Shown: positions 8,467 through 24,900 of the stretch, piece after piece
How the letters are laid out: each line of letters begins with the position of its first letter
Numbering within the stretch: the stretch's first letter is position 1
NCBI RefSeq assembly: GCF_034479375.1
Contig: NZ_CP140155.1
Coordinates: 620,001-684,000, forward strand
Source: Rhodopseudomonas palustris
GTDB lineage: Bacteria > Pseudomonadota > Alphaproteobacteria > Rhizobiales > Xanthobacteraceae
DNA: 64,000 bases
Direction of reading: 5' to 3'
The notes under the pieces: model-generated
Databases searched by the model: none
What the model saw: only the letters and a program-made list of their open reading frames with translations
What the model was told of the DNA's origin: nothing
Program-made: the position numbers and the translations under genes

Positions 8467-9338
8467 GACGCGACCTCCGCGGCGGCGAGCCGACGACGGC
8501 GCGCCGCCAGCATGCCGTGCTTCGGCGCGAAATAGAACGCCGTCAGGAATACCAGCGTCTGCAGCGTGACGATCACCCCGCCGGTCGCGCCGTCGAGGAA
8601 GTAGCTGATATAGGCGCCGACGAAACTGGTGATCGCGCCGACCGAGATGCTGATCAGGATCAGCCGGCCGAAGCGGTCGGTGAGGAGATAGGCGGTGGCG
8701 CCGGGCGTGACCACCATCGCGATGACGAGGCAGGCGCCGACCGTCTGCAGCGCCGCGACGGTGCAGGCGCTGAGCAGGGTGAAGAACACGATCCTGAGCG
8801 CGCGGGGATTGAGGCCTATGCTGCGCGCGTGGTTCTCGTCGAAGAAGGTCACCATCAGGTCCTTCCACAGCAGGGCCAGGATGCCGAGCGAGACCGCCGA
8901 GATCAGCGCCACCTGGACGACGTCCCCGTCGGAGATCGCCAGGATGTTGCCGAGCACGATGGTCTGGACGCTGACCGAGGCCGGCCAGATCGAGGCCATC
9001 AGCAGGCCGAGCGCGAACAGCGTGGTGAACACCAGCCCGATCACCGCGTCCTCGCGCAGGCGCGAGTTCAGCTTGACGAACTGCATGCCGGCCGCGGCGA
9101 GGATGCCGGCGAGGAAGGCGCCGAGTGCGAACGGCGCGCCGATGATATAGGCGGCTGCGACGCCGGGCACGATCGAATGCGCCAGCGCGTCGCCCATCAG
9201 CGACCAGCCCTTCAGCATCAGATAGGCCGACAGAAAGGCGCAGACGGCGCCGACCAGCGCGCTGACCCACATCGCCTTGATCATGTAGTCGTAGCCGAAC
9301 GGCACCAGCATCTCGGCGAGCAGGGAGCCCTCGGCCAT
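8463..9338 (-). CDS. sitC: Manganese/iron ABC importer, membrane permease SitC
   Basis: A 291-aa ABC-3 family permease paralogous to SitD, with the same signature blocks (LKGWSLMGDALAHSIVPGV, VTPGATAYLLTD) and about eight hydrophobic helices. The basic C-terminus (ARRRRLAAAE) follows the positive-inside rule. ATG at 9338 lies one base after the sitB stop, and its own stop overlaps sitD. Two different permeases with one ATPase and one binding protein is the standard SitABCD composition. Confidence 0.88.
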   Translation of the reverse strand: MAEGSLLAEMLVPFGYDYMIKAMWVSALVGAVCAFLSAYLMLKGWSLMGDALAHSIVPGVAAAYIIGAPFALGAFLAGILAAAGMQFVKLNSRLREDAVIGLVFTTLFALGLLMASIWPASVSVQTIVLGNILAISDGDVVQVALISAVSLGILALLWKDLMVTFFDENHARSIGLNPRALRIVFFTLLSACTVAALQTVGACLVIAMVVTPGATAYLLTDRFGRLILISISVGAITSFVGAYISYFLDGATGGVIVTLQTLVFLTAFYFAPKHGMLAARRRRLAAAEVAS

Positions 9339-9339
9339 C

Positions 9340-10221
9340 TCAGGTCTCCTCTTCGTGCCGCTGGCTCCGACGCTCGCCGTACAGCACCAGCGGCCGTTCG
9401 TCGTCGGTGATCACCGTGAGCCGCTGGCGCTCGTCGTCGCGCTCCAATCCGGTGCCGCCGAGCTGCAGGTTGCGCAACACGCCGCCGAACGTCCGTTCGA
9501 GATTGTCTCGCGTGAAGGTCTCGGCGGTCGGCCCGGCGGCGAGAACGGAGCGGTTGATCAGGACGACCTGATCGCAGAACTCCGGAACGCTGCCGAGATT
9601 GTGGGTCGAGACCAGCATCAGGTGCCCGGAATCGCGCAACTCGCGCAACAGGTCGACGATCGCAGCTTCGGTCTTGACGTCGACGCCGGTGAACGGCTCG
9701 TCGAGCAGGATGATGCGGCCGCCCTGCGCCAGCGAGCGAGCGAGGAACACGCGTTTCTTCTGGCCGCCGCTCAGTTCGCCGATCTGGCGGTGGCGGTAGT
9801 CGCTCATGCCGACGCGCTCCAGCGCCTCGTCGACCTTGCGGCGATCGAGCCGCGACGGAATCCGCAGGAAGTTCATGTAGCCGTAGCGGCCCATCATCAC
9901 CACGGTTTCGACCAGCACCGGGAAGTTCCAGTCGACATCCTCGCTCTGCGGCACATAGGCGACGATGTTCTTCTTCAGGGCCTCCGCGACCGACAGACCG
10001 CAGAGTTTCACCACGCCGGAGGTGGGCCGCACGAAGCCCATGATCGCCTTGAAGATCGTCGATTTGCCGCTGCCGTTGACGCCGACCAGGGCGCAGATCG
10101 TGCCGGGGTCGAGCGCGAACGACGCGTCCTTCACGGCGGTGAAGCCGTTCGGGTAGGTGACGGTGAGATTCTGCACTGTGATGCTTGCGACGGGCGTCGC
10201 GCCGAATTCCGAACTAGCCAT
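9340..10221 (-). CDS. sitB: Manganese/iron ABC importer, ATP-binding protein SitB
   Basis: A 293-aa ABC ATPase of the metal-importer subfamily. Walker A is GVNGSGKST (47-55), the signature is LSGGQKKR, Walker B is IILLDEP, and the switch His follows in STHNLG. The C-terminal extension of about 40 residues beyond the ATPase core is usual for SitB/MntB proteins. It follows sitA by 18 bases and precedes sitC by one base. It powers SitC/SitD on the cytoplasmic face. Confidence 0.9.
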
Positions 10222-10239
10222 GTTCGTGATGAGGCGCGA

Positions 10240-11169
10240 TCAAGCGCCAAACCCCTTCGCGATGGTCTCGACGGTCACCTTCAGCAGATCCAGATAGGTG
10301 GGGACCGGCCCACCTGCGGCGCTGAGCGAGTCGACGTATAGCACCCCACCGTAGCGCGCCCCGGCTTCCCGTGCCACCTGTTTCGCGGCGCGGTCCGAGA
10401 TCGTGCTTTCGCTGAACACCACCGGGATGTTGTTCGTGCGTACCAGGTCGATCACCTTGCGCACCTGCTGGGGCGTGCCTTGTTCGTCGGCGTTGATCGG
10501 CCAGAGGAAGGCCTCCTTCATGTCGTAGTCGCGCGCGAGATAGCTGAAAGCGCCTTCGCTCGACACCAGCCAGCGCTTGTCCCGGGGAATGGCGGCCAGC
10601 CGCATCCGCAGCGGCTCGTCGAGTGCCTTGATCCGCGCGGAATATGCGGCGGCGTTGCGATCGTACGCGTCCTTGTTGGCGGGATCGTAGGTGCCTAGCG
10701 CCTTGCGGATGTTCTCGACGTAGATCAGGGCGTTCGAGGGCGACATCCAGGCGTGCGGGTTCGGCTTGCCGGCATAGGGCCCGTCGGCGATCCCCATCGG
10801 CGCGATGCCTTCGGTGACGACCACGCTCGGCACCTGTTTGACGCTCTGGAAGAACCGCTCGAACCAGCGTTCGAGGTTGAATCCGTTCCACAGCACCAGG
10901 TCTGCCGACTGCGCGCGTACGATGTCGCGCGGTGTCGGCTGGTAGTCGTGGATCTCCGCCCCCGGCTTGGTGATCGATTCCACCACGGCCCTGTCGCCGG
11001 CGACGTTCTGCGCGATGTCCTGGATGATGGTGAAGGTCGTCACCACCCGGAACGGCTTGCGCGTTTCCGCTTGGACCGGCCCGGCCAGCAGCACGCCGGC
11101 GAAGGCAGCCGCCAATGCGGCTGCGAAGGCTGTCGTGATCCGGCGGCGGTCGGTGACCTTCGGCTTCAT
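10240..11169 (-). CDS. sitA: Manganese/iron ABC importer, periplasmic binding protein SitA
   Basis: A 309-aa cluster A-I (cluster 9) solute-binding protein with a signal peptide ending near AQA-like VQAE (about residue 34). The four metal ligands of the PsaA/MntC type appear in order: His74 (IHDYQPTP), His139 (PHAWMSP), Glu205 (SSEGAF) and Asp280 (VDSLS). The two-His, Glu, Asp set is the Mn/Fe pattern rather than the three-His Zn pattern. A good ribosome site (AGGGAAACGAGAC) precedes the ATG. It follows the outer-membrane protein gene by 54 bases, so it is probably transcribed from the MntR-controlled promoter near 12256. Confidence 0.92.
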   Translation of the reverse strand: MKPKVTDRRRITTAFAAALAAAFAGVLLAGPVQAETRKPFRVVTTFTIIQDIAQNVAGDRAVVESITKPGAEIHDYQPTPRDIVRAQSADLVLWNGFNLERWFERFFQSVKQVPSVVVTEGIAPMGIADGPYAGKPNPHAWMSPSNALIYVENIRKALGTYDPANKDAYDRNAAAYSARIKALDEPLRMRLAAIPRDKRWLVSSEGAFSYLARDYDMKEAFLWPINADEQGTPQQVRKVIDLVRTNNIPVVFSESTISDRAAKQVAREAGARYGGVLYVDSLSAAGGPVPTYLDLLKVTVETIAKGFGA

Positions 11170-11223
11170 GTCTCGTTTCCCTGATTTGCGTCGGCTGCCG
11201 CTGGGGCCCGGTCCCGTGGCTTT

Positions 11224-12240
11224 CTAGAAATGCACATTGAGGCGCAGCATCGCCTGGTGACGCTCGAAATTCTCGAGGTCGAGACGTCGGCTGTCGCCCA
11301 GCGCTCCGCCCGCGACCTGCATCTGCCAGGTTCCCGACACTCCGAGACTCTCCGAGATGCTGTAGGAGAAGGTCGGGCCGACAAACACCGCGTCGCCGGC
11401 GAAGCGGTCCAGGCCGCCGCCCTCATAGGCTCGCAGATAGCGCAGCGCGACGCCTGCGACGAAGTCCGGCACGAACGCGTAGGACAGCGCGCCGTGCAAT
11501 TCGAGGTCGGAATCGTGGCTCCACAGCCTGGTCGCGCGCTCGCGGGTCGCGCCGGTGCCGTACCAGACGTTGAAGGCGGCGAACAATCTGTCGGGGATCA
11601 GTTCGCGGTCGAACAGCGCGGCGAATTCGGCGCCGTAGTGTTCGATCCGCATGCCGCTGCCTTCATCGACGCGGCTCCAGCCCGGCTGGGCGTGCAGCGT
11701 CAGCCCGAACGGCGCGGAGGTCCTGTCGATCAGCTTGTAGCGGAATTCCATCGTCGCGCCGTTGAAGGTGACGTGGCGCCGGTCGTCGTAGCCCGGTGCG
11801 CCATCGATCCGCTGGCCGCCGAGGCCGAAGCCCGGCGCGATGCGGAATTGATCCGTGACCGTGTATTTCACCTGATTCAGGGTGGCGAGCGTAGCGTAGC
11901 TGCCGCTTCGCTTGCCGAACGCGCCGACATTTTCCATCTCGATCTCGATGTCGCCGCGCCGGCCGATGTCCGATCCCATGGTGAAGCCGAAGATATGCTC
12001 GGTATCGATGTCCTTGGCTTGATGAGCCGGCGCTGCCGGCTTTGCACCGGCGAAGCCGCTCGCCTGCGAGGGGGCGAGAGCGGTGAGCCATGACGGTCGA
12101 TCCGCCGCCGCTGCGGGCCCCACCTGGGCAAGCGCACCTAGTCCCGTCGCCGCCGCCACGGCGACGAGAGCCCGCTTGGGCTGCTGACGTCCGGCCGGGA
12201 TACCCGCCCGCGACCGAATTCTTCGCACCAACATCTCCAC
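11224..12240 (-). CDS. Outer-membrane beta-barrel protein, first gene of omp-sitABCD
   Basis: A 338-aa protein with a long N-terminal signal (hydrophobic core ALVAVAAATGLGALA, cleavage near AAAAD), about ten predicted amphipathic strands and a C-terminal Phe (LRLNVHF), the outer-membrane insertion signature. It is not one of the porin families I know. The gene lies directly upstream of sitA on the same strand and its promoter overlaps an MntR-type palindrome. The best inference is an outer-membrane route for Mn2+, analogous in role (not shown homologous) to Bradyrhizobium MnoP. Start is GTG at 12240 or ATG at 12234; both lie unusually close to a TATAAT box. Confidence 0.7.
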   Translation of the reverse strand: MEMLVRRIRSRAGIPAGRQQPKRALVAVAAATGLGALAQVGPAAAADRPSWLTALAPSQASGFAGAKPAAPAHQAKDIDTEHIFGFTMGSDIGRRGDIEIEMENVGAFGKRSGSYATLATLNQVKYTVTDQFRIAPGFGLGGQRIDGAPGYDDRRHVTFNGATMEFRYKLIDRTSAPFGLTLHAQPGWSRVDEGSGMRIEHYGAEFAALFDRELIPDRLFAAFNVWYGTGATRERATRLWSHDSDLELHGALSYAFVPDFVAGVALRYLRAYEGGGLDRFAGDAVFVGPTFSYSISESLGVSGTWQMQVAGGALGDSRRLDLENFERHQAMLRLNVHF

Positions 12241-12250
12241 ATTCCAGCCA

Positions 12251-12277
12251 ATTATACATGATGTAGCTTTGGCTACA
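12251..12277 (-). promoter_or_regulatory. MntR box overlapping the omp-sitABCD promoter
   Basis: TGTAGCTTTGGCTACA at 12262-12277 is a perfect palindrome (6-base arms, 4-base centre), close to the E. coli MntR box core (TAGC-N4-GCTA). Read leftward, a perfect TATAAT (12256-12251) follows, so a bound dimer would cover the -35/spacer and repress by occlusion when Mn is plentiful. The -10 is only 10 bases from the GTG start at 12240, implying a very short leader. Palindrome and -10 are seen directly; regulator identity is inferred from adjacent mntR. Confidence 0.78.
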
Positions 12278-12315
12278 GACTAGAGAACGGTTCGCAGATG
12301 TCAACTCACCCTAAG

Positions 12316-12333
12316 ATGTAGCGTTGGCTACAT
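12316..12333 (+). promoter_or_regulatory. Second MntR box, upstream of mntR
   Basis: ATGTAGCGTTGGCTACAT is a perfect palindrome (7-base arms, 4-base centre) sharing TGTAGC-N4-GCTACA with the box at 12262-12277. TTGACA, a consensus -35, follows at 12335-12340. The site lies 65 bases before the mntR ATG and suggests autoregulation. The two boxes are 54 bases apart centre to centre, about five helical turns. Confidence 0.75.
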
Positions 12334-12397
12334 TTTGACACGACCAACGAAGCGTGATCTCTCTGGCGCGCAATCTCAAAGGCTTAGGACGGACGCC

Positions 12398-12865
12398 ATG
12401 GCGCTGACGGCTCACCAGAAGCCACCCCCGAACGACGGCGCCGGCACCGAACTACCCTCGGAGCTGACTCAGGCGCGGCGCTTCGGCAAGACGCGGTCGG
12501 CGCAGTCGACCGCGTTGTTCGAAGATTATGTCGAGCTGATCGCCGATCTGCTGACGGGCGTCGGAGAGGCGCGGCCGACGGATATCGCGCGACGGCTCGG
12601 GGTGTCGCATGCGACCGCGATCAAGGCCATCGCGCGCCTGAAGCGGGCCGGATTGGCGACCTCGCGTCCTTATCGGGGTGTCTTTCTCACCGAGAACGGA
12701 CATGCGCTGGCCGAAAAAGTCCACACGCGCCATCGGCTCGTGGTCGACCTGCTGATCGCGGTGGGGGTTCCGGCCGAAGCCGCCGAGGCCGATGCCGAGG
12801 GAATGGAGCACCACGTCTCGGACGCGACCCTGAAGGCATTCGCTCATTTCCTCGGCTCGCGATGA
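12398..12865 (+). CDS. mntR: Manganese-responsive repressor MntR (DtxR family)
   Basis: A 155-aa DtxR/MntR-family metalloregulator. A winged helix-turn-helix (about 57-100, ARPTDIARRLGVSHATAIKAI) precedes the dimerisation/metal domain. Residues matching the B. subtilis MntR metal site are present: Asp43 and Glu46 (FEDYVEL), His112 (RHRL), and Glu134, Glu137 and His138 (AEGMEHHVS). There is no C-terminal SH3 domain, as expected for MntR rather than IdeR/DtxR. ATG at 12398 has GGACGG just upstream; an in-frame TTG at 12335 would overlap the operator and is rejected. It should repress omp-sitABCD and itself when Mn2+-bound. Confidence 0.9.
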   Translation: MALTAHQKPPPNDGAGTELPSELTQARRFGKTRSAQSTALFEDYVELIADLLTGVGEARPTDIARRLGVSHATAIKAIARLKRAGLATSRPYRGVFLTENGHALAEKVHTRHRLVVDLLIAVGVPAEAAEADAEGMEHHVSDATLKAFAHFLGSR

Positions 12866-13261: not shown

Positions 13262-14053
13262 TCAGCCAGCAGCGAGGATGACGTGATCGGGTTCGAACGT
13301 CGCCGCAGCGGTCGAGCCTTCGACGAGTCCGAGATCCTCGACCTGATGACGCGGCACCACCGCGACGAGCGTCTTGCCTTTGCCGAGGTCGAGATGAACC
13401 TCCGAATGAACCTCTGCATCGATGCGCCGCACCACCGTGCCGCGAAACAGATTGCGCCGCAGCCGCGATGCCTCGTCCGGTGATACCAGTCGCACGAACG
13501 GAGCTTTCACCAGCGCCAGCGCCTTTCGGCCGGGGGCGAGGTCGAGCTGTTCCGTCGCGGCGTTGGTGATGATCGCGTGAATCGAGTGTTCGTCCGACAC
13601 TTTGAGGACGACTTCGACGTCGACCGGCCATCGTCGAACGCTCACCACCTCGGTACGGAAGATGTTGCGCGCCGATATTTTGAATCCCGTAGCCCACAGC
13701 AGGGCGTCGCCGATGTCTGCGAGGCCTTCTTCGGCGATCAGCGAGGAAATCCTCGCCAGATGGTCTTCGAGACGATGGAATGCGGTGATCAGCCGGCGGC
13801 CTTCTTCGGTCATCTCGGCGGCTCCGCCGACGCGACCGCTGGTCCGCGTCACGAACGCGGGCGTCGGCAGCAGGTTGTTGATGGCGTCGACGGCTTCCCA
13901 CGCGGTCTTGTAGCTGATCCCCATCGCCTTCGCGGCCTTGCTGATGCTGCCGTGTTCGGCGACGGCCTCCAGCAGACGGATACGGTCACGACCGACCAGG
14001 AGACGCCCGCCGCTCCGAAGCTCGAGATATGCGTCGATCTTGTCGTCGGCCAT
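13262..14053 (-). CDS. modE: Molybdate-responsive regulator ModE
   Basis: A 263-aa ModE. The N-terminal LysR-like winged helix (about 20-75) contains the family-typical RIRLLEAVAEHGSISKAAKA, followed by the AMGISYKTAWEAVD recognition helix. Two Mop/TOBE molybdate-binding domains follow (about 125-190 and 200-263), each with a SARNIFR- or SRLRRNLF-type opening. Molybdate binding normally triggers DNA binding, repressing Mo uptake genes and sometimes activating Mo-enzyme genes. It lies 138 bases downstream of DUF2478, last in the Mo-uptake block on the minus strand. No clear Mo-box was identified by eye. Confidence 0.92.
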   Translation of the reverse strand: MADDKIDAYLELRSGGRLLVGRDRIRLLEAVAEHGSISKAAKAMGISYKTAWEAVDAINNLLPTPAFVTRTSGRVGGAAEMTEEGRRLITAFHRLEDHLARISSLIAEEGLADIGDALLWATGFKISARNIFRTEVVSVRRWPVDVEVVLKVSDEHSIHAIITNAATEQLDLAPGRKALALVKAPFVRLVSPDEASRLRRNLFRGTVVRRIDAEVHSEVHLDLGKGKTLVAVVPRHQVEDLGLVEGSTAAATFEPDHVILAAG

Positions 14054-14191
14054 CGCATGGTGTCGCGTGAGTGGGTTGGGCGCGCCACCCTAGGCGATCG
14101 CGCTGCGAGGGGAAAGCGCGGCGCACCAACCGCAGTGCCCAGAATACCACTTCAGCGGAAACAGCGTCCGATATTGTAGCGCATGCCGAGT

Positions 14192-14719
14192 TCAGCCGAT
14201 GGTCGTGCCCCGTTGCGCGGCAAGTGAGTCGAACCAGGCGACGATCGCGTCCGGATCCACGGGCAACTCTGTCCAGTCGTCGCCCGCAAAATCGATCCAG
14301 CCCGGCAGCATCGATCGATCCACCGCAACAACAGCGGGAATGTCCTCGGCGACGGCGAGTCCGACTTCCTCGCGAATGCCTCGCCCGGCGATTTCCTCTT
14401 TCGCGAACCGTCCGAACAGAACGAGCTGCGGCCGGGTGGCGATCGCTTCAGCGAGCCGTACCTGCGCCATCGTGAGCCCGTCGGCGCTGAGGATGCACGA
14501 TGTCGATCCGGCGCCGAGATCCTGCGACAAGGCGATGGAGTCGCCCCGCACCACGTCATCGAGCCAAAGCGAGGCGCGGCCATTCGCGTGGGGCGAACCA
14601 TAGCGGGGCACGAGGCCGGCGATTCGGGTCGCGGGACGGGCGACGAGGCGGTCGCGGACCGCGCCGAGCGTTTGTTCGAGCGGATCGCCGGGGCGATACA
14701 CCACTACGGCGAGAGGCAT
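14192..14719 (-). CDS. DUF2478 protein (molybdenum-transport-associated nucleotide-binding-like)
   Basis: A 175-aa protein with the DUF2478 pattern: opening strand PLAVVVYRPGD, then LDDVVRG, SQDLGAGSTSC, LVLFGRFAKEE and AVDRSMLPGWIDFAGD. Members commonly lie in molybdate or tungstate transport loci; the biochemical role is unproven. ATG at 14719 matches the usual family N-terminus. The frame is open back to an ATG at 14815, four bases from the ATPase stop, so a longer coupled start is possible but looks non-homologous. It follows the MolC-like ATPase and precedes modE. Confidence 0.75.
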   Translation of the reverse strand: MPLAVVVYRPGDPLEQTLGAVRDRLVARPATRIAGLVPRYGSPHANGRASLWLDDVVRGDSIALSQDLGAGSTSCILSADGLTMAQVRLAEAIATRPQLVLFGRFAKEEIAGRGIREEVGLAVAEDIPAVVAVDRSMLPGWIDFAGDDWTELPVDPDAIVAWFDSLAAQRGTTIG

Positions 14720-14818
14720 CGGGCCACCCGCTCGATTCCCCGCGCCGGTCTTGGTCGCGGGGCCGCCATCGTCGTCCTGGTGATCAAGGCAGTGGTTTCG
14801 AGCATCGCACGACATGCG

Positions 14819-15619
14819 CTACACCTTTGTAGTTGCTGGATGGGAAAGCGGGGATCGCGACACCACGCGCCGCCCCGAGGGGGTCACCTCGAGAGCCAGT
14901 TCGACTCCGTAGAGGCTGCGGAGACGAACGGCGGTCAGAATATCGTCCACCGCGCCTGCTTCGAAGCTCTGCGCCGGGCCGATGACGGCGACGCGATCGG
15001 CGATGGCAAAGGCGTGCTCCGGTTCGTGGGTCGAGACCAGCAGCGCCAGTCCCCGCGATGCCAGGGCGCGGACCTGATCGAGCAGGGCCAGCCGGTTGCC
15101 GAGATCGAGGCTGGCGGTCGGTTCGTCCATCACGATGATGTCGGTGTCCTGGGCGAGCGCGCGCGCGATCAACATCAATTGCCGCTGACCGCCGGAGATC
15201 CGATCGGCGGAGCGTTCGGCGATGCCGGCGATCCCCAGTGTCTCGAGCGCGCGTCGGGCAGCGGCAACGTCGTCGCGGCTCGGCGTCTCGAACATTCCGA
15301 GCCGCGCGGTGCGGCCCATCACTACGAGGTCGATCACCGTGTGGCTCGGATCGCCCTGGTAGGCCTGCGGGACGAACGCGATGTGGCGGGCGATCTGTTC
15401 GCGGCTCATTGTCGCGATGTCGCGGCCGCCGATCAGGATCTGGCCGTTCAGCGGCGGCAGCAGACCGAGGATCGTTTTGAACAGCGTGGTCTTGCCGACG
15501 CCGTTGGGGCCCATCAGGCAGGTCGTGCTGCTGCCCGACAGGTCGAGGTCGATGCCGCCGGCCAGCGCCAGACCGTCATAGCCGATCGTGACATTCCGCA
15601 AAGAGAGGCGGGGCGTCAT
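14819..15619 (-). CDS. MolC/FecE-like ABC importer ATPase, probably molybdate or tungstate
   Basis: A 266-aa ABC ATPase of the FecE/BtuD importer class. Walker A is GPNGVGKTT (about 37-45), the signature is ISGGQRQLMLIARAL, Walker B is IIVMDEPTASLD, and the switch His is in STHEP. The ATG overlaps the permease stop (ATGA at 15616-15619). The family serves siderophores, cobalamin, haem and, in MolBCA, molybdate/tungstate. The adjoining DUF2478 and ModE genes point to the last group. Confidence 0.8.
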   Translation of the reverse strand: MTPRLSLRNVTIGYDGLALAGGIDLDLSGSSTTCLMGPNGVGKTTLFKTILGLLPPLNGQILIGGRDIATMSREQIARHIAFVPQAYQGDPSHTVIDLVVMGRTARLGMFETPSRDDVAAARRALETLGIAGIAERSADRISGGQRQLMLIARALAQDTDIIVMDEPTASLDLGNRLALLDQVRALASRGLALLVSTHEPEHAFAIADRVAVIGPAQSFEAGAVDDILTAVRLRSLYGVELALEVTPSGRRVVSRSPLSHPATTKV

Positions 15620-16638
15620 TCGCGCCTCCACAACGCGCGCGCGCCGTGTCGGGTGATCAGCCAGACGAACAGGCCGCCGCCGACCAGCGCCGTCAATACG
15701 CCGATCGGAATTTCGATGGGCGCAATGGTTCGCGCCAGAGTATCGACTACCACCATGAAGGACGCGCCGAGCAGGATCGACACCGGCAACAGCCGATCGA
15801 AACGCGCGCCGACCAGCAGGCGCGCCAGATGCGGCACCATCAGGCCGACCCAGCCGATCACCCCGGACACGGCGACGACGCTGGCGGTGATGAGCGTCGC
15901 GGCGGCGATCACCACCTGCCGGGTTCGCCGCGTGTCGACACCGAGCGCGCGGGCGTCGTCGTCGCCGAGCGACAGCACGGCGATCCGCCAGCGCAGCAGG
16001 AACAGCGGGATCAGTCCGATGGCGACGGTCGGAACCACCACTGCGAGATCGTCGGGGCGGATGCTGGCGAGGCTGCCGAGCAGCCAATAGGTGATCATCG
16101 GCAGTTGGGAGTAGGGATCGGCGATGATCTTGACCAGCGAGATCGCTGCCGCCGCCAGTGCGCCCACCACGATGCCGGAGAGAACCAGCATGAGAATGTC
16201 GCCGCGTTCGCGCAGCGACCAGGCGAGGGCGGAGACCAGCACGACCGTCAATGACCCGGTGACGAAGCCCATCAGTTCGATGACTGCAACCGGGAGGCCG
16301 AACAGGATGCCGATCACCGCGCCCAATCCGGCGCCGTGCGACACGCCGAGAATGTCGGGCGACACCAGCGGATTGCGAAACAGATTCTGATAGGCCGCGC
16401 CCGCCGCGGATAGCGCGGCCCCGACGCAGATCGCGGCGGCGATTCGCGGCAGACGAATCTGGAACAGCACGGTCGCGGTCTGGCCCTGGTCGTGGTTGCC
16501 GGCCACCCGATCGAGGATGGCGGCGACGACGTCACGTGGCGGAATCTGGTAAGGCCCGGTGCCTGCGGCGAGAATGACGACGAGAGTCAGCAGAACGGCG
16601 AGGCCGAGCGCGACCGGCGTGACCCGAAAATGCGTCAC
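15616..16638 (-). CDS. FecCD/MolB-like ABC permease
   Basis: A 340-aa FecCD-family permease with about ten membrane helices. Conserved blocks are RLPRIAAAICVGAALSAAGAAYQNLFRNPLVSPD (read in pieces), GVIGWVGLMVPHLARLLVG and APIEIPIGVLTALVGGGLFVWL. It starts with GTG at 16638, two bases from the binding-protein stop; the frame is open further upstream but that lies inside the binding-protein gene. It forms a homodimeric channel with the coupled ATPase. Alternative substrates within the family are ferric siderophores and cobalamin. Confidence 0.85.
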   Translation of the reverse strand: MTHFRVTPVALGLAVLLTLVVILAAGTGPYQIPPRDVVAAILDRVAGNHDQGQTATVLFQIRLPRIAAAICVGAALSAAGAAYQNLFRNPLVSPDILGVSHGAGLGAVIGILFGLPVAVIELMGFVTGSLTVVLVSALAWSLRERGDILMLVLSGIVVGALAAAAISLVKIIADPYSQLPMITYWLLGSLASIRPDDLAVVVPTVAIGLIPLFLLRWRIAVLSLGDDDARALGVDTRRTRQVVIAAATLITASVVAVSGVIGWVGLMVPHLARLLVGARFDRLLPVSILLGASFMVVVDTLARTIAPIEIPIGVLTALVGGGLFVWLITRHGARALWRRE

Positions 16639-16639
16639 G

Positions 16640-17692
16640 TCAGTGGCCGAGACCTTCGAGAAATTTCTCGATCTCCGCGTCCGGGATGTCGACCTGATAG
16701 AACAGCCGATAGAAGCCACGCAGGTCGGCCTCGAGGTTTGTCCGTGCGCGGTCGGGATAGAGGGTGTGGACGAGGAGCGGCAATCCGATCAAGCGATTGA
16801 CCGAAGGCGGCAGATCGATGGTGCCGAATGGCCGGTTCGGAAGCAGAAATACGCGTCGGCTCCGCACAGCCGGGACGACCTGCCATTCGGGACGTTCCAT
16901 GATCATGCGCCGAACGGCGGGATCGATAGTGATGATCGTGTCCGGCGCCCATGCGATGACTTGCTCCGGCGAAACGCGTGCGAGGCCGCCCGCCTCGCGG
17001 ACGCCTTCGACGACATTGACGGCTCCGACGCGTTCGATGATCTCGGTGTTGATCGACCCGCGCGATCCGGTTTCGAACCCGTCGAGGCCGCGGGCGAGGT
17101 AGATCCGGGGCCGCACCGCCGGCGGCACCGCCGCGACGGCGCGGTCGACCTCGGCGAAGATCGCTTCGCTGGCGCGGGCCAGGGCTTCGCCGCGTTCACT
17201 GACGCCCAAAATGTCGGCGAGCAGCCGCAGCGCTGCGGGCGTGTTCTCGAATCGCCCGTCGATCAGCAGATAGGGAATTCCGGTCTGCGCCTGGATGCGC
17301 TCGGCGATCGATCGGTAGGTGTCGCTGGTCGCGCCGAAATCGATGATCACGTCGGGCCGGCTCGCCATCAGGCGCTCCGTATTGATGGTGTCGCCGCGGC
17401 CGGTCAGCCGTCCGAGTTCGGGAAGTTCGCGCGTCGCCGGGAGCAAGAAGGGCTTGTCGATGTCGCGGGGCGTGCGGCCCCAGCCGATCATCTTCTCCGG
17501 CGCGACAACGTAGAGAAGCACGCCCGCCGGCGGGCCCGAAGCAAATACGCGATTGATGGTGTCGGGGACCTCGACGCGACGGCCGGCGGAATCGACGACG
17601 GTGCGAGCTTCCGCGGACGACGACGACGCGAGCAACTGGGCGAACAGGAGGAGGACGATCAGCACGATGCTGCGCCCTGCGAGACCGATCAC
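16640..17692 (-). CDS. Periplasmic binding protein of MolA/FhuD-type importer
   Basis: A 350-aa class III (TroA-like fold) solute-binding protein. The signal peptide covers about residues 1-29 ([19 protein letters not shown]). The core opens with [21 protein letters not shown], has [10 protein letters not shown] in the first lobe, a long linker helix, and [32 protein letters not shown] in the second. The architecture matches MolA, FecB and BtuF. The ligand is inferred from ModE and DUF2478; the binding pocket cannot be assigned by eye. GTG at 17692 overlaps the TrmO-like stop (GTGA). Confidence 0.82.
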
Positions 17693-18192
17693 GAACGTGT
17701 CCCTCCCACCTGAAAGTCTCCAGGCTTGGGCAGTGCCATCGGTATGAATTCAGAACGATCGGGTTTCAGATCGATCAGAGGCGTGCCGTCCAGGCAATCC
17801 AGCCCGCGGACCAGCAGACTGGCGCCGTCACGGCCCTCAAGGCGAACGATCGAGGTTCCGATCGGGTTTGGGCGGATCGGTGAGCGAAGCGAAAAGGTGC
17901 CGCGCGTGACGCCGTCATTGCGGGGGCATTGCAGCAGAAGATCGCGCCGCGAACGATGCAACCAATAGAACACTTCGAGCATCGCGCCATCCGCAATGCC
18001 GGCGAGCGCCGGCAGCCAGGGATCGAACATCTCGATGCGGCAAAGCGGTCCGTCGGCACGGCCGGCGCGCGGGCAACTGCCGAGCTCCGACCACGGCGTG
18101 TAGATCCGGCCAATGAAGACCAGCCCGGCATCGGTTTCGCCGGACCAGTCCGTGGCCACTTCGCCGTCTCTGATTTCGTTGTCCATGCTCAT
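17689..18192 (-). CDS. TrmO/TsaA-family (UPF0066) protein heading the Mo-uptake operon
   Basis: A 167-aa protein with the TrmO beta-barrel pattern: FIGRIYTPW near the N-terminus, a [15 protein letters not shown] block, [32 protein letters not shown] (SAM and substrate site of the family) and [15 protein letters not shown]. coli TrmO methylates t6A37 of tRNA-Thr using SAM. Here the gene is coupled by GTGA to a MolA-like gene, so it may be a paralogue with a role in metal handling. ATG at 18192 or 18186; a TTG at 18294 would give a non-homologous extension. Confidence 0.8.
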
Positions 18193-18683
18193 GTGGTGTC
18201 CAGTTCTCGTTCGCCGAGGTCGGTTCGCGCCCGAGCCTGAGGCAGAGACGTCTGATCTGTAACCTCGAATTACATGATTGGAACTGTCGGTCAATCAGTG
18301 GCCTGTCCGTCGAGAAACATCCATTGGACTTAGAATAGTTGCTCTTCCGCCACAGTTGGGGCTGAATTCAACCGATTACGGTGAAATACTGTGCAAAAAA
18401 GCACACGACTACCACTATTTCCCGTATTGCGGGTACCAATTCGGAATGCACGCGGAATGGCATTGTGCGGGATCTTTGCTTCGTTCGAAAAGTAACTTCG
18501 GTAAATAATTTATATAAATATGCGTGCGCTCCGAAAGCTGAACCCGCGCCTTCAGGTCGTGAGGGGCGCTTCAGGCAACCCGAACGCAGCCGCCAAAAAG
18601 ACACTCGATCTTCCACCGACGGCGCTGCGCGCGGGCTGCGGTGGTTCTCGCTTCGACGCGCGTGAACTGGACAGAGGGGCACT
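18193..18683. promoter_or_regulatory. 491-base divergent intergenic region between TrmO-like and TonB receptor genes
   Basis: No gene is supported here. The region is clearly AT-richer than its flanks. It contains a 12-base perfect palindrome, ATTTATATAAAT, at 18508-18519 about 165 bases before the receptor ATG, inside a longer A/T run (18500-18521) that could hold a -10. TGTAA-N7-TTACA lies at 18258-18274, near the other gene. Neither matches a Mo-box or Fur box that I can name. Confidence 0.4.
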
Positions 18684-20867
18684 ATGAAACGGATAAGGCG
18701 CGTGACGATTCTGCTGGCGAGTGCCGCGACGGTCTCTTCGATCGCGGTGGCGCGGGCAGGGAATGAGGGGGCTTACGAACTCGGCATGATTCACGTGACC
18801 GCGCCGGCCGGCGAGGGTTCGGAATTCGGCGAGTTCGGCGGCAGCACGATTTCCAACGCGCAGACCGAGACCTTCAACAAGAACACGCTCGACAAGGCCG
18901 TCGATCTGGTGCCCGGCGTCGTCGCCGCGCCGAGCGGCAACCAGCGCAACGAGACCAACATCTACATCCATGGCTTCGATCGCCTGCAGGTGCCGCTCTC
19001 GATCGATGGCGTGCGCATCTATCTGCCGGCCGACAATCGCCTGGATTTCTCACGCTTTCTCACCGACGACATCGCGCAGATCCAGATCGCCAAGGGTTAC
19101 GTCTCCGTGCTCGACGGATCAGGCGGTCTCGGCGGCGCGATCAATCTCGTGACCAAGAAGCCCGTCAGGCCGTTCGAGGGCGAGTGGCGCAGCCAGGCCG
19201 AGTTCGGCAACAACGGCAAGTTCGACGGCTTCAAGAATTACGCGCGCGTCGGCTCCAGGCAGGACGAATACTACTTCCAGGCCAGCGGCACCTGGCGCAA
19301 GGTCGAAGGCTGGGAGCTGCCGTCGAGCTTCACGCCCACCGCCATCGAGAACGGCGGCCGCCGCGACTTCTCCGATTCGAAGGATTGGAGCGTCAACCTG
19401 AAGGCCGGCTGGACGCCGAACCCGACCGACGAGTATTCGATCAACTTCATCAAGCAGAACGGCTCGAAAAACGCGCCGTACAATGTCGAACCGACCGCGT
19501 CGCAGAAATACTGGTCGTGGCCCTATTGGAACGTGCAGATCCTGTCGGCCGCGACCAGGACGGAGATCGGCGACGATGCCTACATCAAGACCCGGACGTT
19601 CTGGGAGACCTTCGACAACGCGATCGACATGTGGGACAACGCGGCCCAGACGCAGCGATATTCCACCAGTGCGGCGCGGTCGGTCTATCAGGACTGGGCG
19701 GTCGGCAACGCGCTGGAGTTCGGCAAGGATTTCGGGGCTTTCGACACGCTCAAGCTCGCCACACACGTCCGGCGGGACAGCCACTCCGAATGGAACGAAC
19801 TGTTCACCGACCGCTACGGCCTGAATGCTGCGACGGCACCGAAGAGCTCGTCCTGCGCCACCAGTATCACCTCGAGCGCGACCTGTTTCGTCGAGCCCAC
19901 CCAGACCTCGACCGAGGATACCTATTCGGTGGCCGCGGAAAACACCGTCCACATCACCCCCAGTGTCGACTGGGTGCAGGGCGTCGGTTATGATCTGCGG
20001 CATCTCAACAGGGCCGAGGACTACGTGATCGGCCAGTACAAATCCGGCACCTACTATCAGCCTTATTGGGTCAATTATCAGCTGACCAATGATTCGGCAT
20101 TCAATTGGCAGTCGGCGGCGATCTGGCGCTATTCAGAAACGGCCCAATTGTTCCTGAACATTTCCGACCGGACCCGTTTTCCGACGTTGTTCGAGCGATA
20201 CAGCTCCAGGTTCGGCACCGCGGCGTCGAACCCCGACCTGCGCCCGGAACGGGCGGTCAACTATCAGCTCGGATGGACCAATGCGTTTGCGCCAAAAAGC
20301 CAGGTTTCGGTTCTGGTCTACTATGCCGACGTCACAGATATGATCCAGTCGGTCGCGACGGGCAGGAGTTTCACCGATCCGATCTCCGGAAAAGTGTCGG
20401 CCATCACGCAGAATCAGAACGTCGGCGACGGCTACAGGTACGGCATCGACTTCGCTGTCGACTATGCCCTCAGCGCATCGTTGTTGCTGGGCGGCAACGT
20501 CTCCTACATTCGCAACGTTCTCACCAATCCGTCCGACCCGACCGTACAGCAGACCGGCATCCCGACCGTGAAGGGGATGCTGTATGCGAGCTACAGCCCG
20601 ATCGAATCGGTGACGCTCACGCCGAGCCTGCAATTCGCCGACGATCGCTGGTCGGCGAAGAACGAAGTGATCGCCAACAAGTCGGTCTCCAGTTACGTCA
20701 AGACCGGCAGCTACATGTTGGCGAACATGACGGCTGAATACCGGATGAGGGAGAATCTGACCTGGTCCGCGGGCGTGAAGAACATCTTCGATCAGGAGTA
20801 CTCGCTGGCATGGGGCTATCCCGACGCCGGGAGGACCTACTACATCGGGGCGAAGGCGACGTTCTGA
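18684..20867 (+). CDS. TonB-dependent outer-membrane receptor
   Basis: A 727-aa TonB-dependent transporter. The signal peptide (about 1-25) is followed by a TonB-box-like segment (GMIHVTAP), a plug domain (about 50-160) and a 22-strand barrel. The plug carries VDLVPGVVAAPSGNQRNETN and the FDRLQVPLSIDGVRIYLPAD and GSGGLGGAINLVTKKP motifs. The barrel includes NPDLRPERAVNYQLGW and ends in an aromatic residue (YYIGAKATF). Family substrates are metal chelates, cobalamin, haem or sugars. Divergence from the MolABC-like operon suggests a molybdenum or other metal chelate, but this is inference; iron-siderophore uptake is the main alternative. Confidence 0.9.
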   Translation: MKRIRRVTILLASAATVSSIAVARAGNEGAYELGMIHVTAPAGEGSEFGEFGGSTISNAQTETFNKNTLDKAVDLVPGVVAAPSGNQRNETNIYIHGFDRLQVPLSIDGVRIYLPADNRLDFSRFLTDDIAQIQIAKGYVSVLDGSGGLGGAINLVTKKPVRPFEGEWRSQAEFGNNGKFDGFKNYARVGSRQDEYYFQASGTWRKVEGWELPSSFTPTAIENGGRRDFSDSKDWSVNLKAGWTPNPTDEYSINFIKQNGSKNAPYNVEPTASQKYWSWPYWNVQILSAATRTEIGDDAYIKTRTFWETFDNAIDMWDNAAQTQRYSTSAARSVYQDWAVGNALEFGKDFGAFDTLKLATHVRRDSHSEWNELFTDRYGLNAATAPKSSSCATSITSSATCFVEPTQTSTEDTYSVAAENTVHITPSVDWVQGVGYDLRHLNRAEDYVIGQYKSGTYYQPYWVNYQLTNDSAFNWQSAAIWRYSETAQLFLNISDRTRFPTLFERYSSRFGTAASNPDLRPERAVNYQLGWTNAFAPKSQVSVLVYYADVTDMIQSVATGRSFTDPISGKVSAITQNQNVGDGYRYGIDFAVDYALSASLLLGGNVSYIRNVLTNPSDPTVQQTGIPTVKGMLYASYSPIESVTLTPSLQFADDRWSAKNEVIANKSVSSYVKTGSYMLANMTAEYRMRENLTWSAGVKNIFDQEYSLAWGYPDAGRTYYIGAKATF

Positions 20868-21160: not shown

Positions 21161-21470
21161 ATGGATTTCGTCTACGAGGTGATCGGCGAATTGACCGAGA
21201 TGCGGCATCGCAAGGCACTGCTCTTGAGCGGCGGTCAGCAGAAGCTGGTTGCGCTCGGCCGCGCACTCGCCATCGGCACCCGCTGCCTGTTGCTGGACGA
21301 ACCGTTCGAAGGCATCGCCCCGGCTTTGTCGGAGCGGCTCTCCGAAGTGCTGGCGTCATTGCGCGGCAAAGGACCTCACCGTGCTGATTTCGCAATCCGA
21401 TCTTAACCATTCGCGCGGGTTGTTCGAAAAGGAATTCGTCATTGAACGCGGCGCCAATCTGGTGAATTGA
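21161..21470 (+). pseudogene. Frameshifted remnant of an ABC-importer ATPase, C-terminal half
   Basis: The rightward frame gives HRKALLLSGGQQKLVALGRAL (signature) and LLLDEPFEGIAPALSERL (Walker B/D-loop), typical of LivF/UrtE-like ATPases. One extra G in AAAGG near 21370 then breaks the frame. The +1 frame continues DLTVLISQSDLNHSRGLFEK and EFVIERGANLVN to a stop at 21470, matching the expected C-terminus. The Walker A half is missing and no permease genes are present. A decayed fragment. Confidence 0.65.
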
Positions 21471-21910
21471 ACCGAGCGCTGCAGCGCGAAATTCTGAACG
21501 AGGTGGCTTGTCGATGGCCGCCGGCCCTTGCCAGCTTCCGTGGTGGTGATCGAGTCGGAGCTGTGGGTCACCGGACGAGCCCGGCTATGACGCTGGCGCT
21601 GCTTTGGTATCGCCGGGCGGTAGGAGGCTCGGGCGTTCTCACCAACAGCCGGGTAGCTCGGGTAAATGTCGTTGACGCTGTTGCTGGCGTCACGCTCGGT
21701 CGTCATTTCGTAGATCGATCCACTACGCGGCCTCCCCATCATCCGCCAGCGGAGTTCCAGGTCGTATCGCCTGTCGGCGAACAACCGAGTGGAACAGAGC
21801 AATATTGATCATCGTATATCTACGAAGCGAGCATGCTGCCTTTCAGCGACCGGATAGTTGTGAGTCACTGGCGGAATCCAGTTCGCCCCGGTCGAACAAG
21901 GAACCAGCCA
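21471..21910. other. Accessory spacer with no recognisable gene
   Basis: Open frames exist on both strands but give low-complexity, non-homologous-looking translations. Toward the right end the sequence becomes AT-richer (around 21800-21825, including ATCGTATATCTACGA), which may contain the autotransporter promoter. Nothing else can be supported. Confidence 0.4.
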
Positions 21911-24900
21911 ATGGCTTCGATCATCGACGGGGACCGATCGCGTGGTGTGCAGCCTTGGTCCCGCCAGATTTCAAAACGCAGAATGTGCTCCGGGGCACGT
22001 CTATTCCTACCTATTGGGGCGGTGTTCACAAGCGTGCTTCCCCTCTCGGCGCAGACCGTCACAGTCACCAACCAATCCGAATTTGACGCAGCCATTCAGC
22101 AAGCGATCACCGCTGGCCAGCCCAACACTATCGATGTGCTCAGCGCAACGCCGATCACTGCCGATACGGGGTTCGTACTGCCCGGGCAGGCATCGCCGCT
22201 GAACCTCAATTTCGGACTGACGCCCACTCTCAACGTCGGCGTGGGGACGACCGGAACCCTGACGTTCGGTGACGGCACAAATCTCACTTTTGCGCCGACC
22301 ACAGGCCCTGCGGGGTGGTCGGTCGGCCGGGACGCTGGCGGCAACGGCACGGTCAATATGACCGGCGGTGTGGTCTCTTTCGTCGGCTCGCAAGCGAACT
22401 ATCTGGCGCTCAACATTGGGCGCGGCACCGGCGCCACGGGGACGTTCAATCAAAGCGGCGGCAGCGTCGACTTGGCCGGCGGAGCGCTTCAGATCGGCGT
22501 CGTTGGAGGCACCGGCACCTACAACCTCTCGGGCAATGGCTCGCTGGCGCTCTCCGCGACCGCCGGCACTCTGTATCTTGGCGCCAGTGTCGGCGATGTC
22601 GCTCTGTTGCACATCTCCGGCGACGCCAGCTTCAGCGGCGGCCGCCAAATGTATGTGGGCAACGCCGGCAGCTTGGGCATCATCACCCAGGACGGTGCAG
22701 GTTCGAATGTGGTCCTCAACGGCCTGAATTTCGCGCTGTTCGGAGCCCGCGTCGGCGGCGGGGGCGGTCCGGCGGGCACCGGCATCTATAATCTGAGCGC
22801 CGGAAACCTCGACATCGGAAGCTCTGGCGCAAGCTTCGGCAATGCCTCCGGCGGGTTCGGCTACTTCAATCAAAGCGGCGGCACCTTCAACACGGTCGGC
22901 GGCAGCGCGCTGTTGCGGATCGGCCAGTCCGGCACCGGCGAATACAATCTGAGCGGCGGCACCGCGACGCTGGCGGCCGGAATGGATATCGGACAGTTTG
23001 CCGGCTCGAGCGGCACCGTCAATCAATCCGGCGGCGTATTGACGCTCGCAGGCGGGGTGATCCATTTTCTCGCCGGAACCGGAGTCTACAATCTGACCGG
23101 TGGCACGCTGCAGATCGGCGGCGTCAATCCGATTACGACGACTGGCGTTGGCACCTATCAATTCAACCTTGGTGGCGGCACTATCCAGGTGTTCGGATCC
23201 AACCTGGACAGCGATACCCCGTTCACGCTGCTTCCCGGCACGGTCTCGGCGATCGACACCAACGGGTTGAGCGCGTCGCTGAGCGGTGTGCTGTCAGGCA
23301 GCGGCGGCCTGGCCAAGACCGGCGCCGGATCGTTGGCTCTGTCCGGCCTCAATACCTATTCCGGCGGGACCTTCCTGAACGGCGGAATACTCCAGGTCGC
23401 AGCGGACTCCGATCTCGGCGCAACAACCGGAGGCCTCACCTTCGGCGGGGGCACACTGCAATTTCTCACAGGGCTGATGACCAACCGCACAATCAGCCTT
23501 GGCGCCGGCAGTGGCATCTTCGACACCAACGGCAACAATGCAACGCTCGGAGGCCCGATCGACGGCGCCGGTGGGTTGATCAAGACCGGCATCGGAGTTC
23601 TGACGCTGGTCGGACCGGGCAGCTATTCGGGTGCGACGACGGTCGATGCGGGAACGCTTCAAACCGGCGCTGCGGATGTCTTGTCACCGGTCAGTGCCTT
23701 TTCGGTCGCAAGCCTTGGCGCCCTCAATCTCAACGGTTTCGATCAGACCATCGGCTCGCTGTCGGGCAGCGGCGCGGTCGCGTTGGGATCGGCGACGCTG
23801 ACCACCGGCGGTGACGGCAGCTCGACCGAATTTTCGGGCATCGTCAGTGGAGCCGGCGGATTGCGCAAGGTTGGCACCGGCGTCTTCGGGCTCTCGGGTG
23901 CCAACACCTATACGGGTGCGACCACCATCGACGCTGGCGTGTTGAACGTCAGTGGCTCGCTGGCCTCGACGGTGTTTGCCAGTAACGGTGGTACGCTCAC
24001 GGGCAATGGGACCGTTCAGAACCTGGCCGTCGGCAATGGCGGCACCGTGGCGCCGGGCAATGCGACACTGAACGTATCGGGCAATATCAGCTTCGCCGCG
24101 GGATCGGTGTTCGAGGTGGATGTCACTGCGGCAGCACCGTCAAGCCGGCTCGCCGTGGGCGGATCCGCGACCCTGGCGGGTGGAACCGTTCAGGTATTTG
24201 GTACTCCCGCCAGAGATCTCACTTATACAATCCTGACGGCGGCGCAAGGCGTGACCGGCACGTTCGCCAACGTTGTCGCGCCGAGTTCTATCTTCCTCAG
24301 CACGGTGCTGAGTTACACGCCGACATCGGTGCTGCTCAGCCTGCAGCAGACACGCGCCTTTGTCGATGTGGCGGTGACACCGAACCAAGTCAGCGTCGCT
24401 GCCGCGCTTGATGCGCTTCCGGCTGGGAATCCGTTGTTCGAATCGATTTTGACACAGGCCTCCGCGGCCGGTTCCCTGCAAGCATATGATGCGCTCTCGG
24501 GAGAGCTTCACGCCAGCACTCAAACGGTCATGCTCGATGATAGTCGCGTCGTGCGCCAAGCCTTGCTCGGGCGCATGCGGCAAGCGTCGTTCGGCGACGC
24601 GAGCGGTCTCATGGCCTCGCTCGGCGGCGGACCGACCGTCGTCTACGCACAGCCGGCGCTCGCCTTTGAGGATCGCTTCGCTGCCAACGCGGATGCTTTC
24701 GCTTCCGCGGATCCGCGCGGGACGGCGGCGCCGGCCAGGGCCAGGCCAGTCGCCGCCCATGAACACGAGATCGCCTGGTGGACACAGGGCGTGGGGGCTT
24801 GGGGCAAAATCGCCAGCGATCAGAACGCCGCATCCATCACCCGGGATCTGGGCGGGTTCGTCACCGGTGTCGACGCCCGCTTCGGCAATCATTGGCGCGC

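What the first reader, a model, noticed from the sequence alone, without database searches (positions are those of the whole stretch)
13262..20867. Molybdenum-type uptake block with a TonB receptor and TrmO homologue
Seen: a TrmO-like gene, MolA/B/C-like genes and DUF2478 form one tightly coupled run ending near modE, and a TonB-dependent receptor faces away from it across a 491-base region. Known: ModE and DUF2478 mark Mo/W loci; MolABC imports molybdate in H. influenzae; TonB receptors take up chelates. Inference: cells may take up a chelated form of molybdenum (a molybdophore-like complex) through the outer membrane, with TrmO in an unexplained role.
Basis: partly seen in the sequence, partly recalled or inferred. 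Interest (0 to 1): 0.72.

Follow-up and report, generated by a model that had tools for sequence, protein, structure and literature searches.

The report
TonB receptor for molybdenum uptake
A Rhodopseudomonas gene block pairs an outer-membrane TonB-dependent receptor with a molybdate-type importer, and relatives of that receptor in other Proteobacteria often lie beside molybdenum genes or molybdenum-sensor binding sites, so it is probably an outer-membrane gate for molybdenum or tungsten, a role for which I found no TonB-dependent receptor in the paper listings I saw.

Summary
In detail: TrmO-like, MolA/B/C-like and DUF2478 genes form one coupled run beside modE, and a TonB-dependent receptor (TBDR) faces away across 491 bases. 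In the genus (Rhodopseudomonas) receptor and close MolA-like protein occur in the same 7 of 16 genomes, as one block. Beyond it, 42 of the 80 best receptor relatives have a Mo-linked gene within 5 kb (modE 27, MolA-like 12, modA 9, nifQ 3); 0 of 17 regions around the host's 19 other TBDRs do. An E. coli-type ModE box precedes 27 of 80 (5 of 573 other genes, 0 of 1600 shuffles). Of 8 non-own genomes found phylum-wide, 7 show Mo signals, three with TBDR, DUF2478 and MolABC-like genes in one run. So the receptor most likely serves Mo/W import. Not shown: that the substrate is a chelate, what TrmO does, and ModE control in this window, whose gap has no canonical box (best 9 of 16). 27 of 80 relatives, among them 7 of 8 Caulobacter, lack both signals. 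Ten paper searches listed no TonB-dependent Mo receptor.

The parts
18684..20867 (+). TonB-dependent receptor (Plug + barrel), proposed outer-membrane Mo/W receptor
   Evidence: Pfam PF00593, PF07715; family linked to Mo genes and ModE boxes
17689..18192 (-). TrmO-like gene (SAM-dependent methyltransferase family), an extra copy in this genome
   Evidence: PF01980; TIGR00104 88.7 bits, cut-off 93.25; second genomic copy at 57% identity; copies in other Mo loci
16640..17692 (-). MolA-like periplasmic binding protein (Peripla_BP_2)
   Evidence: PF01497 54.3 bits; best solved matches of its profile 4pag, 4ovk, 3psa HI_1472 (MolA)
15616..16638 (-). MolB-like FecCD permease
   Evidence: PF01032 284.7 bits; start codon set from the sequence
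14819..15619 (-). MolC-like ABC ATPase
   Evidence: PF00005 104 bits (scanned there inside a longer ORF)
14192..14815 (-). DUF2478 protein, Mo-locus accessory of unknown function
   Evidence: PF10649 139.9 bits; DUF2478-labelled genes flank modABC in 12 of 16 genus genomes
13262..14053 (-). modE-family regulator, the second besides the one at the main mod locus
   Evidence: HTH_1, TOBE, Mop domains; main modE-modABC locus around C1:3569164
18193..18683 (.). divergent gap between receptor and operon; no canonical ModE box (best 9 of 16)
18338..18353 (.). degenerate copy (9 of 10) of a dyad GTTGC-N6-GCAAC that is perfect in 5 of the 7 orthologous gaps; factor unknown

Best explanation
This is a molybdenum/tungsten uptake block. 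The TBDR, powered by TonB-ExbBD, carries molybdate/tungstate or a small Mo/W complex across the outer membrane; the MolA-like protein takes it in the periplasm; the MolBC-like type II ABC importer moves it into the cell; DUF2478 and ModE handle or sense it. Shown: gene content, coupling, genus-wide co-occurrence, recurrent linkage of this receptor family with Mo/W genes, canonical ModE boxes before many family members. Inferred: transport, substrate, regulation at this locus, any role of TrmO.
For: Receptor and close binding protein are together in 7 of 16 genus genomes and both missing in 9 of 16. 42 of 80 receptor loci (the best 80 of 402) have a Mo-linked gene within 5 kb; host control 0 of 17 regions (NifQ and the other later labels added, still none). 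Rechecks: of 11 weak ModE labels 9 were scanned and all 9 have the ModE DNA-binding domain as best NCBIfam match, under its cut-off as the window's own is; the 3 weak DUF2478 labels counted, and 2 more from the phylum sample, are all over the Pfam cut-off; of 6 weak ModA labels 4 were scanned, 1 being modA over cut-off, 3 only in the general SBP_bac_11 family. A ModE box at 13 or more of 16 positions precedes 27 of 80 receptors, against 5 of 573 other genes of the same loci and 0 of 1600 shuffles; 19 reordered half-sites reach at most 16 of 80 and seven other spacings at most 17 of 80. Phylum sample, 8 non-own genomes: 3 with TBDR, DUF2478 and MolABC-like genes in one run (boxes 12, 11, 14 of 16), 1 with MolABC-like genes nearby and a 16/16 box there, 1 with ModE-like and ModABC-like genes (box 12), 1 with a ModE-like gene (box 13), 1 with a 14/16 box only, and G200 with no Mo label and no box. 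Paracoccus aminovorans has the window's layout, TBDR facing away from trmO-SBP-permease-ATPase. Elsewhere the receptor sits with nifQ (3 of 80), in a selenium-dependent Mo-hydroxylase maturation cluster and with modD. MolA-like loci in the wider class: 11 of 20 have a Mo/W-type gene other than receptor or TrmO.
Against: No canonical ModE box in the window's gap or in the six sister gaps (best 9 to 10 of 16). 27 of 80 relatives have neither Mo gene nor box, among them 7 of 8 Caulobacter, 5 of which have an MbnH-type di-haem gene as neighbour. G200 has only an SBP_bac-type binding protein and a di-haem oxidoreductase beside it, though the same pair stands beside modE in other loci. The 80 loci are related (several Rhodopseudomonas, Caulobacter, Azospirillum), so counts are not independent. 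All 16 genus genomes have ModC over cut-off, so the block is not the only Mo importer. One other TBDR region of the host (L250) also has a FecCD-type set with a distant binding protein at 76 bits, under the threshold of 150. Linkage and operators are not transport.
Confidence: 0.8

Rival explanations
1. The system imports a chelated form (Mo-siderophore, molybdophore) and not the free oxyanion; methyltransferase, ModD or di-haem neighbours make or process the chelate. (A variant of the best explanation, not its opposite.)
For: TBDRs often take chelates (recalled). A methyltransferase recurs as neighbour: TrmO-like in the window block and others, an unrelated class I methyltransferase with ModD in a Proteus mirabilis record and in G680. 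Di-haem enzymes lie beside many receptors.
Against: H. influenzae MolBC-A imports molybdate (PMC4031551, passages seen). No chelator synthesis gene was recognised among the window ORFs scanned outside the block (20, none beyond 42934; several small ones also not scanned). TBDR substrates include free metal ions (PMC7193533, passage seen).
Confidence: 0.35
2. An iron-siderophore or haem receptor with a FecCD-type importer, beside modE by chance.
For: The best-scoring generic families are haem, siderophore and B12 ones, all under cut-off; databases name the binding protein an iron ABC protein.
Against: Linkage with ModE, DUF2478, ModABC and NifQ and ModE boxes in distant genomes; no Irr-type box in the gap (best 9 of 14, pattern recalled); the host's other TBDR regions show no Mo gene.
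Confidence: 0.07
3. The family carries another ligand (for example copper, given MbnH-type neighbours) and only some members were recruited to Mo.
For: 20 of 80 loci have an MbnH-like neighbour; 7 of 8 Caulobacter relatives have no Mo signal.
Against: Of the 20 MbnH loci 5 also have Mo genes and 3 more have a box of 13 or more; Mo contexts occur in all the larger branches of the receptor tree. The window's own branch is Mo-linked.
Confidence: 0.08

Closest known systems
Haemophilus influenzae MolABC (HI1470-1472) molybdate importer
   Same: Peripla_BP_2 binding protein + FecCD permease + ATPase; MolA (3psa, HI_1472) is the third-best solved match of the binding-protein profile
   Different: The paper seen (PMC4031551, abstract and passages) treats the inner-membrane system; 'TonB' has 0 hits in its text. 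Here receptor, DUF2478, ModE and TrmO-like genes belong to the block
ModABC/ModE regulon (E. coli ModE consensus as printed in PMC545781)
   Same: a modE-family gene is present; canonical boxes precede many relatives of the receptor
   Different: The window block is apart from the main modE-modABC locus and lacks a canonical box
TonB-dependent receptors for metals and cofactors (BtuB, OprC, CrtA, YncD)
   Same: Plug and barrel family
   Different: Only weak sequence matches to solved receptors (BtuB 1e-9); here the context is molybdenum. OprC, CrtA and YncD were seen only in paper listings and passages, not compared in sequence
Pseudomonas aeruginosa secreted ModA with outer-membrane protein IcmP (cited in PMC11734730)
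   Same: An outer-membrane route for molybdate
   Different: Works with the H2 type VI secretion system and IcmP; the passage seen does not call it TonB-dependent

Membership tests
TonB-dependent receptor | Plug and barrel domains over Pfam cut-offs | tested here: met
   PF00593 106.3 bits (27), PF07715 58.3 bits (23.9)
TonB-dependent receptor | needs TonB for transport | not testable with these tools
   Hints only: ExbB/ExbD-like genes (my reading) after some relatives, an annotated TonB family gene after one
MolABC-type molybdate importer | Peripla_BP_2 + FecCD + ABC ATPase in one operon | tested here: met
MolABC-type molybdate importer | binding protein closer to MolA than to siderophore or B12 binding proteins | tested here: met
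   Profile ranks 4pag, 4ovk, 3psa (MolA) first; what 4pag and 4ovk bind was not checked
MolABC-type molybdate importer | molybdate-binding residues and binding | not tested
ModE | ModE HTH plus molybdate-binding (Mop/TOBE) domains | tested here: inconclusive
   TIGR00638 Mop 107.2 over cut-off 55; TIGR00637 ModE repressor domain 88.4 under cut-off 98.5
ModE regulon | canonical ModE box before receptor or operon | tested here: not met
   Best 9 of 16 in the gap; reached (13 or more) before 27 of 80 relatives
TrmO tRNA methyltransferase | TrmO_N domain; NCBIfam equivalog cut-off | tested here: inconclusive
   PF01980 met, TIGR00104 88.7 under 93.25; a separate copy exists elsewhere in the genome
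ferric-siderophore receptor | over a curated siderophore-receptor cut-off | tested here: not met
   TIGR01783 101.5 bits, cut-off 223.5; no tree with siderophore receptors was made
molybdophore (Mo-chelate) uptake | transport of a Mo chelate | not testable with these tools
   No computation here separates chelate from oxyanion

The most novel reading that the evidence does not exclude
A widespread ModE-controlled TonB-dependent uptake system for molybdenum/tungsten chelates exists in Proteobacteria (TBDR + DUF2478 + MolABC or ModABC), in which accessory methyltransferases (TrmO-like or class I), ModD and di-haem enzymes make, modify or break the chelator: a true molybdophore pathway with its own outer-membrane receptor.
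Probability: 0.3. Interest if true: 0.88.

Novelty: new variant of a known kind. Interest (0 to 1): 0.72.

Why it matters
From general knowledge (recalled), molybdate is usually assumed to pass the outer membrane through porins. A dedicated energised receptor family, marked by ModE boxes and Mo genes in Azospirillum (with nifQ), in purple phototrophs such as Rhodopseudomonas and Blastochloris, in Methylosinus, and beside moaA and nitrate reductase genes in a Pseudomonas record (the lifestyles are recalled), would add an outer-membrane step to Mo/W homeostasis, give receptors now annotated with siderophore transport another substrate class, and make the question whether bacteria import Mo chelates directly testable.

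Tried and rejected
Iron regulation: an Irr-type box scored at best 9 of 14 in the gap, so not supported; Fur and RirA were not modelled. Link with Fe-only nitrogenase (idea: strains without it need the block): AnfD is over cut-off in 3 of 7 block-bearing and 5 of 9 other genomes (G155 holds a fragment besides), p = 1: rejected. A TrmO clade special to Mo loci: the window copy groups only with the three other genus copies put in and L174; the other Mo-locus copies do not join it (L092 sits alone on a long branch, the rest fall in the part of the tree that holds the other TrmO copies), so recruitment may have happened more than once; long branches leave doubt. A shared operator for this ModE type: the dyad GTTGC-N6-GCAAC is perfect in 5 of 7 genus gaps but not found in 9 other loci tried (best 6 to 7 of 10): unexplained. 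Treating the 80 loci as independent: rejected, they are related; the phylum sample is the fairer test, though its model included G200 and only two candidates per genome were scored. One receptor (L219, frame split) was dropped from the tree.

Literature: ten searches, of which 9, 22, 23, 45, 63, 67 and 92 bear on a TonB-dependent Mo receptor. I saw listings, often only the top 15 to 25 rows (for instance 20 of 1,795, 25 of 93), and passages of PMC545781, PMC4031551, PMC5343134, PMC12914433, PMC11734730, PMC6925177 and PMC7193533; none named such a receptor. The library lacks most subscription journals, no regulon database was searched, and the paper of Studholme and Pau 2003 on ModE sites was not held, so prior description cannot be excluded.
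Full report
What is in the window. The stretch 13262-20867 holds, on the minus strand, TrmO-like, MolA-like, FecCD permease, ABC ATPase and DUF2478 genes with 4-nt overlaps or gaps of 1 to 3 nt, then a modE gene 138 nt on, and on the plus strand a TonB-dependent receptor 491 bases away. The genome is one contig of 5.3 Mb; its genus is Rhodopseudomonas, from the names of the nearest loci and proteins.

Conservation in the genus. A close MolA-like protein (74% identity or more) occurs in 7 of 16 genomes (13 of 16 if relatives of 26-29% identity are counted) and the receptor in the same 7 of 16. All seven have the whole set; in G089 an acyltransferase-like gene (my reading) stands before modE. 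Each of the 16 also has ModC over the curated cut-off, and the own genome has a modE-modABC locus around C1:3569164. DUF2478-labelled genes flank modABC in 12 of 16 genomes; the own genome is one of the four without and has DUF2478 in this block instead. A canonical ModE box (14 or more of 16 positions) stands at or next to the start of such a DUF2478 gene in 9 of 16 main mod loci.

The MolA-like importer elsewhere. Of 385 genomes of the class, 20 (own included) have the binding protein at E 1e-30 or better, five candidates being scored per genome at most. Of the 20 non-genus loci fetched (19 genomes, one with two), 11 have a Mo/W-type gene other than receptor or TrmO in the stretch held: TupA/TupB-like, ModA-like, ModA/ModB, ModE, a MOT1-like gene, or XdhC with YqeB/YqeC (the names TupA/TupB, ModA-like and MOT1-like are my reading of the sequences). 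Nine show none; two of these stretches are 10 kb or shorter, and one (G423) has receptor and TrmO-like gene beside the importer.

The receptor elsewhere. Class sample: 6 of 385 genomes at E 1e-40, at most two candidates scored per genome: own; G423 (next to the MolABC-like operon, a TrmO-like gene and two 13/16 boxes); G230 and G442 (receptor, XdhC-like and MolA-like genes beside YqeB and YqeC, with SelD checked in one: a selenium-dependent Mo-hydroxylase cluster, without permease or ATPase nearby); G196 (two 14/16 boxes upstream, no Mo gene); G200 (no Mo gene, no box). A scan of named genomes gave 402 relatives, of which the best 80 were held. Of these, 42 have a Mo-linked gene within 5 kb: ModE 27, MolA-like 12, TrmO-like 9, ModA 9, DUF2478 7, ModB 4, ModA-like 4, NifQ 3; 40 of 80 if only ModE, ModA, ModB, ModA-like, NifQ and MolA-like are counted. 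The same labels and thresholds found none in 17 regions that hold the host's other 19 receptors (NifQ and the di-haem labels were added, again none). One of those regions, L250, has a FecCD-type set with a distant binding protein under the threshold. Weak labels were rechecked in part (see the For line).

ModE boxes. With the E. coli consensus as printed in PMC545781 (passage seen), 27 of 80 receptor upstream regions reach 13 of 16 positions, against 0 of 1600 dinucleotide shuffles and 5 of 573 other genes of the same loci. Both groups contribute: 16 of 42 with and 11 of 38 without Mo neighbours. Either signal is present in 53 of 80. The start codons used were estimated and the loci are related, so p-values overstate independence. 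In the window's gap the best is 9 of 16, in the six sister gaps 9 to 10: ModE control here rests on gene adjacency alone.

A fairer sample. Of 398 genomes drawn across the phylum, 9 have the receptor at E 1e-80: own, G200 and seven outside the class. In the seven: receptor, DUF2478, binding protein, permease and ATPase in one run in three, one with an ORF of weak TupA likeness in between; one of the three also has a ModE-like gene and a 14/16 box, and is Stenotrophomonas sp. SY1 by identical protein and contig length. MolABC-like genes nearby with a 16/16 box there in one; ModE-like and ModABC-like genes in one; a ModE-like gene and a 13/16 box in one; a 14/16 box alone, with the SBP_bac-type and di-haem pair, in one. 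G200 has that same pair without Mo gene or box; the pair adjoins modE in three of the 80 loci (L176, L185, L187). Of 14 records found in the plasmid collection eight were opened. Paracoccus aminovorans has the window's divergent layout; Shinella and Bartonella have the receptor next to MolABC-like genes; Proteus mirabilis has MolABC-like, methyltransferase and ModD genes, the receptor, and boxes of 14 and 15; a Pseudomonas aeruginosa record has receptor, moaA, nar genes and a 14/16 box; Methylorubrum extorquens CM4 a 14/16 box and DUF2478 4.5 kb away; Azospirillum argentinense and Sphingomonas paeninsulae no Mo gene and no box before the receptor of 13 or more.

TrmO. The block copy is an addition: the own genome has another at C1:1719102, the two other block-bearing genus genomes sampled have two matches each and the four block-less ones one each. 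In 18 of 20 family genomes looked at, TrmO has no Mo-specific label near it; in G045 it lies in a run with ModB- and ModC-like genes, in G075 beside weak ModA-like and DUF2478 labels. Mo-locus copies do not form one clade. A methyltransferase partner thus recurs; its substrate is unknown.

Mechanism. Best supported: TonB-driven passage of Mo/W across the outer membrane, capture by the MolA-like protein, import by MolBC, with ModE and DUF2478 as Mo-side partners. The receptor-Mo link is shown by linkage and operators only; transport, ligand form and local regulation are inferred.

Noticed in passing
window 8463-12865: A ZnuABC-type importer, a porin-like gene and a DtxR/MntR-type regulator, with two copies of a TGTAGC-N4-GCTACA-like dyad near 12260-12340; a relative of the porin-like gene sits beside the main modE-modABC locus (L149).
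   Followed up: partly
window about 21200-21460: What looks, by eye, like a remnant of an ABC ATPase between the receptor and a large autotransporter gene (21833-25594).
   Followed up: no
window 38998-40035: A moaA-type molybdenum cofactor gene about 18 kb downstream of the receptor.
   Followed up: no
L190, L189, L173, L234 and others: MbnH-type or DHOR di-haem enzyme genes, often with a small secreted protein without Pfam match, adjoin many relatives of the receptor; 5 of 20 MbnH loci also have Mo genes.
   Followed up: partly
L100, L101: Receptor and MolA-like protein without a permease or ATPase nearby, in a selenium-dependent molybdenum hydroxylase maturation cluster.
   Followed up: yes
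L302 4066-5735; L296; L170: ModD (NadC-like) in receptor loci, in two of the three with a class I methyltransferase.
   Followed up: partly
window 18338-18353 and sister loci: Dyad GTTGC-N6-GCAAC, perfect in 5 of 7 orthologous gaps, 9 of 10 here, 7 of 10 in L076; binding factor unknown.
   Followed up: partly
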